A program made the translations under genes and the position numbers. Positions 1,971-7,200 of a stretch of DNA of 7,454 bases are shown here, piece after piece; position 1 is the stretch's first letter; each line of letters begins with the position of its first letter. The DNA lies in the NCBI GenBank assembly GCA_026706505.1, contig JAPOYQ010000036.1, positions 1 through 7,454 of the forward strand. The letters are read 5' to 3'. The DNA comes from Gemmatimonadota bacterium. Lineage in GTDB: Bacteria; Latescibacterota; UBA2968; UBA8231. The notes below the pieces were generated by a model. That model worked only from the letters and a program-made list of their open reading frames with translations, was not told the origin of the DNA and ran no database searches.

Positions 1971-2681
1971 ATGTCTAGAGCACTTCCCCGTAAGCCCCAT
2001 ATAGATTCCCTCAAAAAGCAGGCCCGGCAGTTACTCCAGGCGCACCGCGAGGGCCGGCCGGAAAGCCTCCGCAGCATTCGGACCTATATGCCTCATTTAG
2101 GTTCATTGTCCGACGAGGCCGCCCTGCAAAGGCCATTTACCTTGCAACAGGCCCAATGCGTCCTCAGCCGCGAGTATGGGTTTAGCAACTGGGCCGAATT
2201 AGTCCGAGCTGTCGAGATTATCCGTCAGGCCGAGTCGGCTATGCTGAGTCAAGTCGATGCCGCTCTGCGCAACGGTCAATCTATCCATGTGTTGATTCCC
2301 GAGCACATGGCGGCGGACATCGCCCAAAGACTGACCGCTCATTGCGGCCAAAATCAGGTACTCTTGGTACTTCGCGAAAGCCAAGAGCCGTTCAATGGCT
2401 GGATCGACCGGATAGCCGCGGCGGCAGTGGTAGTTAGTCCCCCTGGAGAGTTGGGCTTTCTCCACATGCACGAACGCTTGCAAAAACCTGAAGGACCATG
2501 GGATTTCGAGCAGCTTTTATCTGAAGCCCACGCCTTCGTGAACGTGCCGTTCAGAGATGAAAAGACGCCTTTAATTATTTCTGGCTTGGATGAAGAAACA
2601 GACACTGTCCGCGACCTGATTTCCATGTATCTGACGGAGTTCTATGGGTTATACGGTGCGATGATGGACCATCGATATTGA
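1971..2681 (+). CDS. Hypothetical protein with an N-terminal helical module and an unrecognised alpha/beta C-terminus
   Basis: The protein has 236 residues, no signal peptide and no obvious membrane segment, so it is probably cytoplasmic. Residues 11-82 (IDSLKKQARQLLQAH ... FTLQQAQCVLSREYGFSNWAELVRAVE) resemble a short helical module that, from memory, often precedes ankyrin repeats in proteins of large environmental genomes. No ankyrin repeats follow here. Residues 85-236 alternate helices and hydrophobic strands (IHVLIPEHMA, VLLVLRES, AAVVVSPPGELGFLHM, TPLIISGLDEE) and end in an aromatic helix. There is no Walker motif, no nuclease signature and no Cys or His metal cluster. The start is set by a GAGAGAGGG ribosome binding site. 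The gene is separated from the upstream gene by 158 bp and converges on udk. G+C is about 47-58% in the lines I counted, below the 5-prime gene and udk, so later acquisition is possible. Function unknown. Confidence 0.8.
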   Translation: MSRALPRKPHIDSLKKQARQLLQAHREGRPESLRSIRTYMPHLGSLSDEAALQRPFTLQQAQCVLSREYGFSNWAELVRAVEIIRQAESAMLSQVDAALRNGQSIHVLIPEHMAADIAQRLTAHCGQNQVLLVLRESQEPFNGWIDRIAAAAVVVSPPGELGFLHMHERLQKPEGPWDFEQLLSEAHAFVNVPFRDEKTPLIISGLDEETDTVRDLISMYLTEFYGLYGAMMDHRY

Positions 2682-2720: not shown

Positions 2721-3341
2721 CTACAAAGCAGTTAGGACGGCTGAGACCTGTTCTTCAGTAGGCGTGCTACCGTCGAGGATCAAATCCGCGTAGCGGGCAG
2801 TGGGCTGGATGTGGCGGCGGTACATTGGGCGAACCTGTTCTTGGTATTGGGCGCGGATCGAGGCAGGGGAACGGCCGCGCTCGACGCGGTCGCGGGCGAG
2901 GCGGCGCTCCAAGCAGAGCGCGTCGTCAGCCACGACGAAGAGGCGCAGGTGGTAGAGAGCATTGATGTCGGGCCAGTAGAGGGCAAAGAGGCCCTCGACG
3001 AGCAGGAAGTCGGTGGGAGTGAGGCTCTGTTGGTTGGCTTGGCGCGTGTGGGAGGCAAAGTCGTACACTGGGATTTCGACGCGGTAGCCGGCGGCTAACT
3101 GGCGGAGATCCGCGGCGAGGCGTTGGTGGTCCATGGCCTCGGGAGCGTCGAAGTTGACGCGGGCTCTTGCGGCTGGGGAGAGGGCGGCTAAGTCGCGGTA
3201 GTACGCGTCTAGGGAGAGCACCGTGGCTGGGCCGGGCAGGTGGGTCTGGAGGGCGCGGGCGAGCGTGGTTTTACCGGCACCGGATGGTCCGGCTAAGCCG
3301 ATGAGGCGGGGCGACCTTTTAGCTTTGGAATGGGGCTGCAT
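2721..3341 (-). CDS. udk: Uridine kinase family protein (uridine/cytidine kinase)
   Basis: Uridine kinase phosphorylates uridine or cytidine to the monophosphate with a nucleoside triphosphate, in cytosolic pyrimidine salvage. The 206-aa length is close to the roughly 210 aa usual for the family. Visible motifs in order are: P-loop GPSGAGKTT (residues 18-26); SLDAYYRD (43-50), holding the family Asp and Tyr-rich substrate loop; NFDAPEAMD (63-71); PVYDFASHTR (91-100), the nucleoside-binding strand and loop; VEGLFAL (115-121), the Walker-B-like segment; and the Arg-rich lid RRLARDRVERGR (146-157). All of these agree with the family, so it should be active. The annotated ATG has no clear Shine-Dalgarno. 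Its first codons contain one copy of the 13-bp repeat that also ends polX, which suggests the present N-terminus (MQPH) was made by the R-M insertion. Phosphoribulokinase-like relatives share the fold, but the spacing of these motifs favours uridine kinase. Confidence 0.88.
   Translation of the reverse strand: MQPHSKAKRSPRLIGLAGPSGAGKTTLARALQTHLPGPATVLSLDAYYRDLAALSPAARARVNFDAPEAMDHQRLAADLRQLAAGYRVEIPVYDFASHTRQANQQSLTPTDFLLVEGLFALYWPDINALYHLRLFVVADDALCLERRLARDRVERGRSPASIRAQYQEQVRPMYRRHIQPTARYADLILDGSTPTEEQVSAVLTAL
3318..3330. repeat. 13-bp direct repeat, left copy (in the udk 5-prime end)
   Basis: TTTAGCTTTGGAA on the plus strand. On the minus strand it encodes part of udk residues 4-8 (His-Ser-Lys-Ala-Lys). 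An identical copy lies at 5505-5517. The two bracket the lower-GC R-M gene pair and are read here as the footprint of its insertion. Confidence 0.7.
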
Positions 3342-3368
3342 TCTTGACTCGTAAGATACCGTCTATAA

Positions 3369-3453
3369 GTTCAAAAAGACAGGGTTGTGGGAACGATCCG
3401 ACGCGTGTAATCCCTCCACTAGCGAGATTCCCACTCCCATTGGTGTTCAAAAA
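3369..3453. repeat. 9-bp direct repeat pair GTTCAAAAA
   Basis: The copies are at 3369-3377 and 3445-3453, with starts 76 bp apart, upstream of the methyltransferase gene. The second ends about 10 bp before the methyltransferase Shine-Dalgarno. Part of the match is an A-run, which weakens it, but a 9-mer repeat in a 134-bp region is uncommon by chance. Confidence 0.5.
3387..3434. repeat. 7-bp inverted repeat GTGGGAA / TTCCCAC
   Basis: The perfect arms at 3387-3393 and 3428-3434 are separated by 34 bp. The spacing is long for a terminator and has no T-tract. Paired protein-binding half-sites are a more natural reading, without direct support. Confidence 0.4.
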
Positions 3454-3463
3454 ATTATGAAGA

Positions 3464-3470
3464 AAGGAAG
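3464..3470 (+). promoter_or_regulatory. Strong ribosome binding site of the methyltransferase gene
   Basis: AAGGAAG lies 5 nt before the ATG at 3476. It is the best Shine-Dalgarno in the window and contrasts with the endonuclease gene, which has none. This fits the usual need for methyltransferase to be made readily when a cassette enters a new host. Confidence 0.65.
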
Positions 3471-3475
3471 AGCCA

Positions 3476-4414
3476 ATGAACCAAATCGGGCCTTTCCCGA
3501 TCAATAAGACCCACGAAGGCGACTGTTTAGACCTGATTCCGCAACTTCCGGACGAGTCCGTGAACATAGTTGTGACGAGTCCTCCCTATTGGGGGCAAAG
3601 GCACTCGGAAGGGATCGGTATCGAAAAAGACCCGAGGGATTATCTACAGTTTCTCACAAAAGCCTTTGTGGAAGTTTTACCGAAGTTGAGACCGGAAGGG
3701 ATTCTTTGGATCAATATAGGAGACGCTTACAACACCCCTGTGAACTGGAATCAGAAAGCATGGAAATTCAGCACCTTGGGTGCAAAAAAACAAGGTTTTT
3801 CGGAGGACAATTCAGCGTACACCAAACCACGGGCGCGCCGAAAAGCATTTATCGACAAGGATGAAACGTGGCTTCAGTATGGCAATCTTCTGGCGCTCCC
3901 ATATCGTCTTATTATCGCCCTTTGCGACGCGGGCTACTTGTTCCGAGGAGAAGTGATTTGGCGAAAGAAAAATGCCATGCCTGAGGGCCGCTGCCGACGC
4001 CCACATCGTCAACACGAATCGATTTACTTGCTGACAAAGAGCGAGCGGCATGGTTTTCGCGTAACGCCTCCGATTAAGAGCGTGTGGGAGTTCGCAAACG
4101 AGAAGATTGACGGGCTCAAGCATTTTTCACGCTTCCCCAAGGAATTGCCAATTCGTTGCATTAAGGCGTACGGAACCTGTGGAGAAGATGTTGTGGTTTT
4201 AGATCCGTTCTCCGGATCGGGCACTACAGGAATCGCGGCACTGACCCTTGGCTGTTCCTACATAGGATTTGAAGTTGACCCCGAGCAAGTTCAGGCCTCC
4301 AACAAACGCTTAGAGGAAAGTAAAGGGCCAAATTTGGAATTATTTCCGAAATCGGAGACTCTCCGAAACGACGAACTTAGTGAAGGCATCGTCCGGGTCG
4401 GTGAAGTCACATGA
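3476..4414 (+). CDS. Beta-class amino DNA methyltransferase (probably cytosine-N4), modification subunit of a Type II R-M system
   Basis: The enzyme transfers a methyl group from S-adenosylmethionine to the exocyclic amine of a base in the recognition site, protecting host DNA from the paired endonuclease. Its 312 residues follow the beta-class order. The catalytic motif IV TSPPYW is at residues 34-39, followed by a central variable region likely to contain target recognition (about 85-200). Then come SVWEF (202-206), HFSRFPKELPIRCI (216-229) and the cofactor-binding motif I DPFSGSGTTG (243-252), then GFEVDPE (264-270). Ser-Pro-Pro-Tyr-Trp with this arrangement usually marks cytosine-N4 enzymes, but adenine-N6 cannot be excluded by motif alone. 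No key residue is missing. A strong ribosome binding site precedes the ATG. The last 24 codons or so (from Leu289) overlap the antisense 3-prime end of the endonuclease gene; the family core seems to end before that. G+C is about 47-55% in the lines counted, lower than the flanking housekeeping genes. Confidence 0.9.
   Translation: MNQIGPFPINKTHEGDCLDLIPQLPDESVNIVVTSPPYWGQRHSEGIGIEKDPRDYLQFLTKAFVEVLPKLRPEGILWINIGDAYNTPVNWNQKAWKFSTLGAKKQGFSEDNSAYTKPRARRKAFIDKDETWLQYGNLLALPYRLIIALCDAGYLFRGEVIWRKKNAMPEGRCRRPHRQHESIYLLTKSERHGFRVTPPIKSVWEFANEKIDGLKHFSRFPKELPIRCIKAYGTCGEDVVVLDPFSGSGTTGIAALTLGCSYIGFEVDPEQVQASNKRLEESKGPNLELFPKSETLRNDELSEGIVRVGEVT
4340..4414. other. Convergent overlap of methyltransferase and endonuclease 3-prime ends
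   Basis: The two R-M genes face each other and share 75 bp coding on both strands. The overlap covers methyltransferase residues from 289 on and the last 24 or so endonuclease residues. It contains a 6-bp perfect stem TCGGAG (4352-4357) / CTCCGA (4361-4366) with a 3-nt loop. TCCGA at 4345-4349 can pair alternatively with 4352-4356. No T-tract follows on the plus strand and only a short one on the minus, so it is a poor intrinsic terminator. Confidence 0.8.
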
Positions 4415-5503
4415 ATAAATCCGTGCCTTTACTAGGGGGGTATCGGGAGGGGTCGGACGAGTATTGCTATTGTAGGAAAAGCACGCTGAGAAAAAGCCGT
4501 CACTTTCTATGTCTTTTCTCTTAGCGTTCCTTTGATCCTGACCTTCTGCGGTAAAGGGTCTGCCTAATTCGCCGCGATTGACGGGCTCAGGACTAGGGAA
4601 ACTCTTGCAATCCATCGTCCATAGCGGGGAAATGTAGCTAGCATCAACCAGTGCTTGACTCATAGGAACATCGTCTGTCCGGCGTTCCGCAAAACTCGCC
4701 TTGACGTGAACGACCCCAATCATCCGTTCGTTTACGCCCTCGCCGACCGTTAGCATAATATCCACTTTGTCTGCTTCAAGGCGGTGACCCACGTCGATAG
4801 CGTGAAGAATTCTCGCCTTACGCTCGGAATCTTTACGTACCATGTTGATCCCTTGCTTCGCCAGAGTAGCACCGTAATGTTTTTCGAGAACCAACTCCAA
4901 GGCCCAACCAGCAGTTCGTTTCCAGCTTTGCGCAAAGTCTAAGCGAGCATACTGGGCAGGATGGTTGTATGGGTCACAGTAGGCGCGATATACGAGAAAC
5001 CACCAGAGATCGGAGGGGTTAGCTTGGGGCCAGAATTCAACGGCTTTCATGAACGCATTGGCCACACTTTCCATCTTAATCGTCTCGACTCGCTGGTCTT
5101 CAATCCCAGAGTTAGCAAGCTGAGCGAGTCCATTTCGCAACGTTAGGACTATTTCCGTGAACTGCTCCACGGTAGCATCTTCAAGGAGGTAGGTAGCATC
5201 GTATTCGCCATAGGGAAAGTGAAGAATGAGATTATTGCCGACTTCTTCAGGAGTAATTGAGCGTTTTATGGACGGAGCGTTCCCTTCTATGTCTTCTGCA
5301 AGGTCGCGCAGGGTTTTGCCATAGAGTGAGAGAAGAGACATAACCACATCAAGACCGGGAAGGGCCGCACCGCTCTCGAACGCGTGGATCCATCCTGGCC
5401 CCAAAACAAGGTTATTTTCGACCTGCTCAGGCTCAAGTTGGGCTTCCTGACGAAATGTATGCAGTCGCCGAAAAAGCTGTGAGAGGTAATCGCTACGGGT
5501 CAT
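4340..5503 (-). CDS. BsaWI-like (CCGG-family) Type II restriction endonuclease with N-terminal XRE helix-turn-helix
   Basis: The protein should cut unmodified DNA at the site protected by the adjacent methyltransferase. Counted from the ATG at 5503 it has 387 residues. A frame extending to a TTG at 5521 exists, but that would overlap polX and has no better ribosome site. Residues about 14-70 align without gaps to XRE-type DNA-binding domains (EPEQVENNLVLGPGWIHAFE, SGAALPGLDVVMSLLSLYG). A helical region follows (about 85-190). The catalytic part carries SWKRTAGWALE (193-203), with Glu203 a candidate helix acid, then DKVD (245-248) and VVHVKASFAERRTDD (264-278). This reads as a PD-(D/E)xK-type site with Asp248 and Lys268, with His266 in the usual acidic position. 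CCGG-family enzymes use such a relocated acid, and the Arg/Asp-rich stretch after the Lys resembles their base-contact motif. Assignment to BsaWI rests on remembered motif similarity. The start is 2 nt after the polX stop and lacks a Shine-Dalgarno, suggesting coupled translation. G+C is near 50%. Confidence 0.75.
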   Translation of the reverse strand: MTRSDYLSQLFRRLHTFRQEAQLEPEQVENNLVLGPGWIHAFESGAALPGLDVVMSLLSLYGKTLRDLAEDIEGNAPSIKRSITPEEVGNNLILHFPYGEYDATYLLEDATVEQFTEIVLTLRNGLAQLANSGIEDQRVETIKMESVANAFMKAVEFWPQANPSDLWWFLVYRAYCDPYNHPAQYARLDFAQSWKRTAGWALELVLEKHYGATLAKQGINMVRKDSERKARILHAIDVGHRLEADKVDIMLTVGEGVNERMIGVVHVKASFAERRTDDVPMSQALVDASYISPLWTMDCKSFPSPEPVNRGELGRPFTAEGQDQRNAKRKDIESDGFFSACFSYNSNTRPTPPDTPLVKARIYSCDFTDPDDAFTKFVVSESLRFRK

Positions 5504-5504
5504 G

Positions 5505-5517
5505 TTTAGCTTTGGAA
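5505..5517. repeat. 13-bp direct repeat, right copy (at the polX stop)
   Basis: TTTAGCTTTGGAA, identical to 3318-3330. On the minus strand it encodes the last three polX residues (Phe-Gln-Ser) and the TAA stop. It ends one base before the endonuclease ATG, so the whole R-M block abuts the repeat. Confidence 0.7.
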
Positions 5518-7200
5518 CCAAGCGGCAATGGCTTCGCGGCTGAGCGCATTGGGGATGTCGGTGGCGCGGAGCCAGCCCTTGCGGGCAATGCCAATGCCGT
5601 AGCCGAGATGATCTAGGCCGACGACGCTGTGGGCGTCGGTGTTGACGGCGATTTGGACGCCGTGGTCGCGCGCCTTTTTGACGTGCCGCCAGTCGAGGTC
5701 GAGCCGCGACGGGTGGGCGTTGATTTCGAGGGCGACCCCACAGCGGGCGGCGGCTTCGATGATCGAGTCGATATCGACCGCATAGCCTTCGCGGCTGAGG
5801 AGCAAGCGCCCGGTTGGATGGCCGATGATGGTGGCCGCTGGATGCTCGATGGCGCGGACGATGCGGGCGGTCATAGCGTCGCGGCTCAGGTTGAACTGCG
5901 AATGGACCGAGGCGACCACGAAATCGAATTGGGCGAGCAGGTCGTCGTCGTAGTCGAGCGAGCCGTCGCCGAGGATATCCGACTCAATGCCCTTGAAGAT
6001 GCGGAAGGGAGCCAATTCCTCGTTGAGCTGGTCGATTTCTTCCCATTGACGCTGGACTTCCTCAACGCGAAGCCCTCCGGCATAGGCCGCGGCCTGACTG
6101 TGGTCGGCAATGCCCATGTACTCAAAGCCGCGTTCTTGCACGGCGCGGGCCATGGCCTCCAAGCTATCGGCCCCATCCGAATAGGTCGAATGCACGTGAA
6201 GCATGCCGCGAATGTCGGCGGTTGTTACCAGATCGGGCAGTGTGTCGGCGGCCGAAGCCTCGACTTCGCCTTGGTTCTCGCGCAACTCTGGCGGAATGTA
6301 GGCGAGGCCCAAGGCGGCGAACAAAGCTGCTTCATCTGCGCACTCGATGTGCTCGTCGTCGCGCCAGAGTCCGCGTTCGTCGAGGACTAGCCCGCGCTCT
6401 GCGGCCTTGGCGCACAGTGCGGTGCGGTGTTCCTCGCTGCCTGTGTAGTAGTGTAGGGCCGCAGAGAAGGCATCGTCTGAGACTATATACAAGTTGGCTT
6501 GCAGCCCGCTGGACAGCCGCCCTGTGCTCGGCGCAAGGACTTCGGCTATATCCGGATGGTAGCCAAAGGCCGCAGTCGCGGCCTCGGCGTCGGTGGTGCT
6601 GATTACGAAGTCGAGTTGCTGGACTGTTTCTCGCGCTCGACGCAGTTCTCCGGCGATGGCAAAGTGCTGCGCGTGGGAGCACAGGGTTGTGAGCAGACTT
6701 TGAGCGCTTTGGTGGGCGGTATCGACGCGGCAGTGGCCCTCGTGGGCGCGAATGAACTCGACGCCCTTGAGAATGGTTGCCTGGGTCTTGGAGCCAAAGC
6801 CCTTGAGGGCGGCGAGTTGGCCGTCGCGACAGGCTTGTTCAAGGGCGTCGAGAGTCTCAATGCCGAGGGCCTTGCGGATGGCGACGATCTTGCGCGGCCC
6901 CAAACCGGGGACTCGCAGCATGTCGAGCAGACCCCCGGGCGTTGCGGCCCGCAGCTTTTCATAGGCTTGGGCCGTGCCGGTGTCGGCCAACTCGGCGACT
7001 AGCTCGGCCACGCTGTCGCCAATGCCTTTGACCTCGGTCAAAGTCCCGGCGGCGAGGAGTTCGTCGAGGGGGGACGTCAGAGTTTCGAGGGCGCGCACGG
7101 CATTGGCGTAGGCGCGCACCCGGAAGGGGGAGGCTCCACTGAGTTCGAGGAGGGTGGCGTACTCTTCGACAAAATCCGCTGCGATCCGGGCCGTTATCAT
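5506..7200 (-). CDS. polX: Family X DNA polymerase/PHP protein with a degenerate polymerase site (non-canonical PolX)
   Basis: Bacterial PolX joins a Pol-beta-like polymerase to a Mn-dependent PHP 3-prime exonuclease or phosphodiesterase and acts in DNA repair. From the ATG at 7200 it has 564 residues, normal for the family; the longer frame would run through the upstream gene. The order is an N-terminal 8-kDa-like domain with helix-hairpin-helix segments (VKGIGDSVAELVAE 57-70, VPGLGPRKI 97-105, LKGFGSKTQ 132-140), then the nucleotidyltransferase core (GELRR 184-188, ETVQQLDF 191-198, GLQANLY 232-238, YYTGSEEH 251-258), then PHP (about 330-564). In active enzymes the core carries D-x-D and a third Asp. 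Here these are Gln195, Asp197 and Asn236, so polymerization is probably lost. The PHP ligands are all present: His335, His337, Asp342, His367, Glu406, His433, His461, Asp522 and His524. The start overlaps the upstream stop as ATGA, implying translational coupling. Polymerase-inactive, exonuclease-active PolX variants are known in bacteria. G+C is about 68-72% in two lines counted. Confidence 0.93.
   Translation of the reverse strand: MITARIAADFVEEYATLLELSGASPFRVRAYANAVRALETLTSPLDELLAAGTLTEVKGIGDSVAELVAELADTGTAQAYEKLRAATPGGLLDMLRVPGLGPRKIVAIRKALGIETLDALEQACRDGQLAALKGFGSKTQATILKGVEFIRAHEGHCRVDTAHQSAQSLLTTLCSHAQHFAIAGELRRARETVQQLDFVISTTDAEAATAAFGYHPDIAEVLAPSTGRLSSGLQANLYIVSDDAFSAALHYYTGSEEHRTALCAKAAERGLVLDERGLWRDDEHIECADEAALFAALGLAYIPPELRENQGEVEASAADTLPDLVTTADIRGMLHVHSTYSDGADSLEAMARAVQERGFEYMGIADHSQAAAYAGGLRVEEVQRQWEEIDQLNEELAPFRIFKGIESDILGDGSLDYDDDLLAQFDFVVASVHSQFNLSRDAMTARIVRAIEHPAATIIGHPTGRLLLSREGYAVDIDSIIEAAARCGVALEINAHPSRLDLDWRHVKKARDHGVQIAVNTDAHSVVGLDHLGYGIGIARKGWLRATDIPNALSREAIAAWFQS

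What the first reader, a model, noticed from the sequence alone, without database searches (positions are those of the whole stretch)
3318..5517. R-M cassette inserted between polX and udk, bounded by a perfect 13-bp direct repeat
TTTAGCTTTGGAA occurs exactly at both edges of the lower-GC methyltransferase/endonuclease block: at the 5-prime end of udk and at the polX stop. A 13-mer repeat somewhere in 7.4 kb is not very rare by chance. Having one copy at each border of the compositional change is. Deleting one repeat plus the insert joins polX to udk on the same strand. The pattern suggests either a target duplication or recombination at a short homology, with no recombinase gene in the cassette. 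Such a naked, site-precise R-M insertion is a clear case of cassette mobility and deserves comparison with relatives.
Basis: partly seen in the sequence, partly recalled or inferred. Interest (0 to 1): 0.72.

Follow-up and report, generated by a model that had tools for sequence, protein, structure and literature searches.

The report
Old restriction cassette between two genes
A two-gene DNA-cutting defence cassette landed long ago between two overlapping housekeeping genes of a little-studied kind of bacterium, apparently copying 13 letters of the target as it did so, and in relatives it has rotted or is missing without a trace; it looks like a clean example of a known kind of event.

Summary
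TTTAGCTTTGGAA sits at 3318-3330 and 5505-5517, at the GC change points. The 2174-bp core holds only an AgeI-like endonuclease (R) with an N-terminal HTH domain and a DNA methyltransferase (M). Six of eight close relatives have the empty site with one repeat copy (13/13 in four, 12/13 and 11/13 in two). There polX and udk overlap by 23 nt, and the duplication is what leaves both genes whole in the window. The other two relatives carry rotted pieces of the same cassette, with the same inner ends, at the same place, but their polX-side repeat matches only 8/13. The pieces diverge about as much as the flanks. Best reading: one old insertion with a short target duplication, then scarless loss in some lineages and internal decay in others. 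"Cassette mobility" thus describes one old event; today's presence/absence is probably loss, or exchange of whole alleles by homologous recombination, which is not excluded because the trees are weak. R starts 2 nt after the polX stop and the insert brings no leader for it, so its translation probably depends on polX. R-M insertion with target duplication is already described: a new member of a known kind, with an instructive set of later states.

The parts
3318..3330 (.). udk-side copy of the 13-bp direct repeat (TTTAGCTTTGGAA); codes for the last base of udk codon 4 and codons 5-8
   Evidence: empty sites with one copy
5505..5517 (.). polX-side copy of the 13-bp repeat; holds the polX stop codon
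3331..5504 (.). core of the insert, 2174 bp, absent from six relatives
3476..4414 (+). M: DNA methyltransferase, 312 aa, N6_N4_Mtase
   Evidence: PF01555 9.5e-37; PADLOC MTase_II 2.2e-55
4340..5503 (-). R: AgeI-like restriction endonuclease with N-terminal HTH_31 domain, 387 aa; 3' end overlaps that of M by 75 bp
   Evidence: PDB AgeI 5.1e-40, BsaWI 6.5e-4; HTH_31; PADLOC REase_II 3.8e-42
3331..3475 (.). non-coding end of the insert apart from the first udk codons: leader of M on the + strand, and on the - strand the new 5' end of udk (ATG at 3341)
   Evidence: sequence; L005 keeps the last 48 bases or so, L004 the last 12
2721..3341 (-). udk, uridine kinase; start codon and first codons (ATG CAG CCC CA) come from the insert
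   Evidence: NF004018 5.1e-56; empty sites read TTG CCG CTT GG instead
5506..7200 (-). polX, DNA polymerase / 3'-5' exonuclease; stop TAA, then AC, then the R start codon
   Evidence: NF006375 7.1e-152

Best explanation
A type II R-M pair without mobility genes inserted once, before the sampled lineages of this clade split, at the stop codon of polX, duplicating 13 bp of target. Because polX and udk overlapped by 23 nt, only a product that kept a polX stop on one side and the udk reading frame on the other could leave both genes working; the duplication did that, and the insert edge supplied a new udk start codon. The other edge lies 1 nt before the R start codon, so R has no leader of its own and is probably translated by coupling to polX termination, while M keeps its own leader. 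Afterwards some lineages lost the cassette without a scar, as deletion between the two 13-bp copies would do, and others, where the polX-side copy had drifted, lost it piecemeal. Shown: structure, empty sites, remnants at the same site, divergence like that of the flanks. Inferred: the single insertion, deletion between repeats as the route of loss, coupling of R to polX, activity of the pair.
For: Empty sites with one repeat copy in 6 of the 8 close relatives; remnants with the same inner ends in the other 2. Joined flanks align without gaps to all six empty sites. Remnant DNA is 86-94% (L004) and 87-92% (L005) identical to the window, against 88-91% for polX, udk and GH in the same genomes. 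Insert-type udk N-termini in 17 of 26 udk clusters, empty-type in 8, one unclear (P0122 is L004 and P0144 is L008, so two of these repeat loci). R and polX/udk clusters share listed longest-contig lengths 4522573, 2795841 and 106685, with identities to the window of 87/88, 88/89 and 93/88%. The fewest state changes are 5 on the udk tree, 4 on the polX tree (18 of 85 rows with a state) and 2 for the empty label on the DNA tree (6% of 200 bootstrap trees need one). Two neighbouring markers show all four combinations: cassette present or absent, orf236 intact or scarred. R homologues start within a residue or two of the same place, so R is complete.
Against: Trees are weakly supported: holding window+L004+L005 together gives p-AU 0.051, holding the six empties together 0.076, and starred branches alone force no more than one change; on the polX tree 33 of 500 shuffles of the label need as few changes. 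Exchange of whole alleles between species could give the same patchiness. The exact 13/13 pair is seen in one genome only; both remnant carriers have 8/13 on the polX side. Contig-length links are inference, not read context. The insertion event itself cannot be seen.
Confidence: 0.7

Rival explanations
1. The cassette entered the locus once in the clade and then spread and vanished by homologous recombination in polX, udk and beyond: whole alleles, filled or empty, were exchanged between species. The 13-bp repeat is then a relic of the first event and plays no part in loss.
For: All four combinations of cassette and orf236 state occur side by side; quartet site counts are mixed (596, 419, 493 summed over 16 overlapping quartets); flanking homology is high.
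Against: No switch of affinity near the insert in polX: the stretch next to the insert resembles the empty relatives most. polX has 2 sites shared by window, L004 and L005 against all empties, and 13 shared by window and all empties; GH has 1 against 7; udk has 3 against 3 and does not decide.
Confidence: 0.25
2. Integration of a circular or linear R-M fragment by crossing over at a chance 13-bp homology, rather than copying of the target. The donor already carried the 13-mer.
For: The product has the same structure. My estimate, from no call, is that many 13-bp matches exist by chance between a 2-kb molecule and a 6-Mb genome.
Against: It needs the donor 13-mer to lie exactly 1 nt before the R start codon. 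No donor was found, but little was searched: R hits in 2 of 64 genomes of the phylum, both at this site; at E <= 1e-20, 0 of 195, 0 of 396 and 1 of 400 genomes in three other phyla (the one, at 35% identity, was not examined further).
Confidence: 0.2
3. Repeated independent insertions of the same cassette at this site by a site-specific process.
For: One variable base (position 7 of TTCCAAAGCTAAA) agrees between the two copies within the window (A, A) and within L004 (C, C), as copying of two different targets would give.
Against: One site only, and it seems to vary in empty relatives too (udk S-N-A-K against S-K-A-K). Cassette and flanks have diverged about equally. No recombinase in the core.
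Confidence: 0.05

Closest known systems
R-M units inserted with short or long target duplication (Furuta 2010 and Nobusato 2000, neither read; as told in passages of the review PMC3874152)
   Same: R-M genes in a host genome with a direct repeat of target sequence and no linked mobile element; inferred from comparison with empty relatives
   Different: 13 bp here; no convincing terminal inverted repeats; set in an overlapping gene pair; decayed and empty forms in relatives
AgeI / BsaWI restriction endonucleases (CCGG family)
   Same: R residues 144-381 align with residues 44-276 of the 278-residue AgeI chain, with D142, K168, E173-R174 and D177-D178 of that chain all identical in R
   Different: R has an N-terminal HTH domain; its target sequence is not known
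IS-linked R-M movement (PMC3031569, passages read)
   Same: direct repeats from insertion
   Different: no IS here; there the repeats were 8-10 bp (IS1) or 4 bp (IS5)

Membership tests
R-M insertion with target duplication | direct repeat at both edges, one copy in empty relatives | tested here: met
   one copy, 13/13 in four of six empty relatives, 12/13 and 11/13 in the other two
R-M insertion with target duplication | imperfect inverted repeats at the ends (said of the short-duplication form) | tested here: inconclusive
   14 of 18 alignment columns alike near the ends; 15 of 500 shuffles as good with 30-bp ends, 43 and 240 of 500 with 60- and 120-bp ends
IS element or transposon | transposase gene within the element | tested here: not met
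   R and M are the only genes found in the core
AgeI-like CCGG-family endonuclease | sequence similarity across the catalytic domain with permuted PD...K...D/E residues | tested here: met
   5.1e-40 to AgeI, residues aligned and identical; motif as described in PMC6344858 passages, V-D in place of P-D in both R and AgeI; Pfam RE_BsaWI is below its cut-off (24.2 against 26.2 bits)
AgeI-like CCGG-family endonuclease | cleavage of a CCGG-cored site | not testable with these tools
   site avoidance was not specific
Type II DNA methyltransferase, amino (N6/N4) class | N6_N4_Mtase domain | tested here: met
   PF01555 127.5 bits against cut-off 26.7

The most novel reading that the evidence does not exclude
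The 13-bp repeat works as a built-in exit. As long as the two copies match, the cassette can be deleted without a scar, restoring the overlapping gene pair, and this has happened several times; once the polX-side copy drifts, the exit is shut and the cassette can only rot in place. The same repeat fuses R to polX translation, so loss, expression and host gene integrity hang on one 13-bp stretch.
Probability: 0.35. Interest if true: 0.5.

Novelty: new member of a known kind. Interest (0 to 1): 0.36.

Why it matters
R-M insertions with target duplication are inferred from filled and empty genomes. Here one filled, two rotted and six empty forms lie at one site in one clade, so what happens to such an insert after arrival can be followed, and the part of a short repeat in its loss can be tested. 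It also shows how an insert can settle in an overlapping gene pair without breaking either gene.

Tried and rejected
Own genome: not held; relatives used instead. Viral contigs with R: no match. Phages: no match; plasmids: one Gordonia plasmid at 44.5% identity with another gene order, not scanned for flanking repeats. Copies of the M-side end of the cassette (3331-3560) in 25 family genomes: only the L005 locus. Methyltransferase in 25 family genomes at 1e-15: only the two remnant loci. R in three other phyla at 1e-20: 0 of 195, 0 of 396, 1 of 400; the tool warns that an empty answer without a known positive shows little.

Site avoidance as a footprint of past residence: pooled loci suggested strong avoidance of ACCGGT and TCCGGA (0.29, 0.22; outgroup 1.23, 1.49), but these loci are copies of one region. 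On sampled stretches of three ingroup genomes (400, 400 and 240 kb) the ratios were 0.51-0.72 and 0.35-0.61, ranks 24-40 and 11-25 of 64 palindromes, in genomes that avoid many palindromes far more; G007 gave 0.95 and 0.94, G016 0.59 and 1.08. Rejected as specific evidence.

Terminal inverted repeats: weak. Promoter scan of 3200-5700: 2 sites against 1.5 expected, none in the M leader; Rfam at gathering threshold: none. Structure prediction was not run; the AgeI match made it seem unnecessary.

Rows dropped before counts. Protein searches list only the best 120 hits (of 1060, 1424 and 7966). udk tree: P0147-P0156 and P0158-P0160 (N-terminus missing) and hits after P0161 were left out; P0157 and P0161 were the outgroup; P0146 had no state; classes were set by my own pattern on the N-terminus; L004/P0122 and L008/P0144 are duplicates; the bootstrap had not settled. 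polX tree: P0315-P0317 and hits after P0320 were left out; 67 of 85 rows had no state; P0296 and P0298 were called filled from their C-terminus, P0285, P0301 and P0312 from contig-length links, P0297 and P0304 are L004 and L005, and the three outgroup rows were assumed empty. orf236 states of L003 and L005 were not classed (other sequence there).
Full report
What is there. The window holds, in order, a large unnamed protein gene (10-1812 +, open at the window's start, called GH here for short; no Pfam match at 0.001), a small unnamed gene orf236 (1971-2681 +, no Pfam match), udk (2721-3341 -), M (3476-4414 +), R (4340-5503 -), polX (5506-7200 -) and the end of an inositol monophosphatase gene. 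The 13-mer of the finding is at both stated places and is identical. The GC change points fall on it, and a shared 13-mer at two such borders did not arise in 20000 shuffles.

The genes. R is 387 aa: residues 12-64 match HTH_31, residues 144-381 match the solved endonuclease AgeI at 5.1e-40 and residues 132-298 match BsaWI at 6.5e-4. The aligned AgeI residues D142, K168, E173, R174, D177 and D178 are identical in R (D248, K268, E273, R274, D277, D278; my count on the alignment); which of them are catalytic is taken from the permuted motif in passages of PMC6344858 and from recall. M has the N6_N4_Mtase domain; its TSPPYW motif, recalled as more typical of N4-cytosine enzymes, stands before the DPFSGSGTTG motif. 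R and M converge and their 3' ends overlap by 75 bp. R has 1060 homologues at E <= 0.001, of which 120 were listed; most listed full-length ones begin within a residue or two of the same place, so the ORF is full length.

The empty site. A scan with polX found relatives whose records are titled Latescibacterota or Gemmatimonadota/-etes and which the genome tool puts in one family. In L001, L002, L003, L008, L009 and L022 the polX end and the udk start overlap; there is one repeat copy, 13/13 in four, 12/13 in L008 and 11/13 in L009; the more distant L006 and L007 are empty too (10/13 and 11/13). In L003 the udk frame opens at a TTG inside polX. The window flanks, joined, align without gaps with 193-199 of 213 bases identical, and the overlap from that TTG to the polX stop is 23 nt. 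A simple insertion into this overlap would break one gene. The 13-bp duplication keeps the polX stop on one side and the udk frame on the other, and the insert edge supplies ATG CAG CCC CA in place of TTG CCG CTT GG. That selection filtered for such a product is inference.

Remnants. L004 and L005 carry pieces of both R and M at the same place, with several internal deletions. Their inner ends agree with the window: ATGACCCGTAGCGATTACCTC after polX, and AATGCAGCCCCAT before the udk-side copy. The polX-side copy is 8/13 in both; the udk-side copy is 12/13 in L004 and partly deleted in L005. Identity of the pieces to the window is 86.5-94.3% in L004 and 87.2-91.7% in L005 (end pieces include some flank bases; 15-nt matches left out), like polX, udk and GH (89.1, 88.9, 91.4% and 88.0, 88.3, 90.8%). 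The pair has thus been in place for about as long as the lineages have been apart, or travelled with its flanks.

How widespread. Among the 25 genomes of the family, and the 64 of the phylum, R is found only in these two. In the protein collection, 17 of the 26 best udk clusters (P0121-P0146) begin with the insert-type sequence (Q-P-H or close variants), 8 with the empty type (P-L-G-S), 1 with neither. R clusters P0001, P0003 and P0004 list the same longest contig as udk P0145, udk P0127 and polX P0301 (106685, 2795841, 4522573), which suggests intact pairs at this site in further species. This is inference from lengths; I could not read that DNA.

Gain or loss. The fewest changes between filled and empty are 5 on the udk tree (0% of 200 rough bootstrap trees with one change) and 4 on the polX tree; on the DNA tree of polX+udk+GH the empty label needs 2 (6% of bootstrap trees need one). 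With a single insertion the two protein trees mean three or more losses or transfers. Support is weak: in the DNA tree the window groups with four empty relatives at 84/94, the alternatives are at p-AU 0.051 and 0.076, and branches with strong support do not by themselves force more than one change. A separate argument is the neighbour orf236: it is intact in the window, L009 and L022 and reduced to a similar scar in L001, L002, L004 and L008 (judged by eye; L003 and L005 differ and were not classed). Cassette and orf236 states occur in all four combinations, so at least one of them changed more than once or the stretch recombined. Sites near the insert show no switch towards L004 and L005 in polX, while udk does not decide; this mildly favours loss over exchange in the window's own lineage.

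How it probably works. R has no leader from the insert: one nt separates the repeat from its ATG. The polX stop ends 2 nt before that ATG in the window (TAAACATG), overlaps it in L004 (ATGA) and ends 1 nt before it in L005 (TGATATG). R is therefore probably translated by re-initiation after polX, and may regulate itself through its HTH domain. M keeps 145 bp upstream with what looks like a ribosome site. None of this was measured.

What is known. [quoted passage not shown] PMC3031569 (passages) tells of long and variable duplications and shows IS-linked cases. PMC4687349 (abstract and outline) reports site avoidance as a trace of lost R-M systems; my test of that was not specific. This locus fits the short-duplication form, with the inverted repeats unproven. 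None of the six paper searches listed a paper that is evidently about this locus (listings only; PMC12993501 on sponge-associated Latescibacterota was listed and not read). Verdict: a real, old insertion of a known kind, with an unusually complete set of later states.

Noticed in passing
window 1971-2681; L009; L022; L001, L002, L004, L008: orf236, an unnamed accessory gene between udk and GH, is intact in three genomes and reduced to a similar short scar in four, with a pattern that conflicts with the cassette's.
   Followed up: partly
L063-L114 (stretches of G002, G004, G003): These genomes strongly avoid many palindromes (CAGCTG 0.05-0.14, GGCGCC 0.09-0.24, GTCGAC 0.09-0.19 of expected) and also GTAGAC/GTCTAC (0.15-0.33) and GTATAC (0.07-0.41), the full GTMKAC set; the relative G007 does not (lowest palindrome 0.56), G016 avoids a different set. 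This suggests a long history with many type II R-M systems.
   Followed up: partly
udk cluster P0146, polX cluster P0302: udk begins MTLKTLTQKPPRLIG, neither the filled nor the empty type: perhaps a third junction form.
   Followed up: no
window 3318-3330 and 5505-5517; L004 junctions: Position 7 of the 13-mer (read TTCCAAAGCTAAA) is A in both copies in the window and C in both copies in L004.
   Followed up: no
L057 (Gordonia plasmid): A 44.5% relative of R on a mobilizable plasmid lies near a methyltransferase on the other strand, with a small gene between them, unlike the convergent order here.
   Followed up: partly
window 3345-3360 and 5485-5502: Near its ends the core has a weak inverted likeness (TGACTCGTAAGATACC / TGACCCGTAGCGATTACC), reached by 15 of 500 shuffles.
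   Followed up: partly
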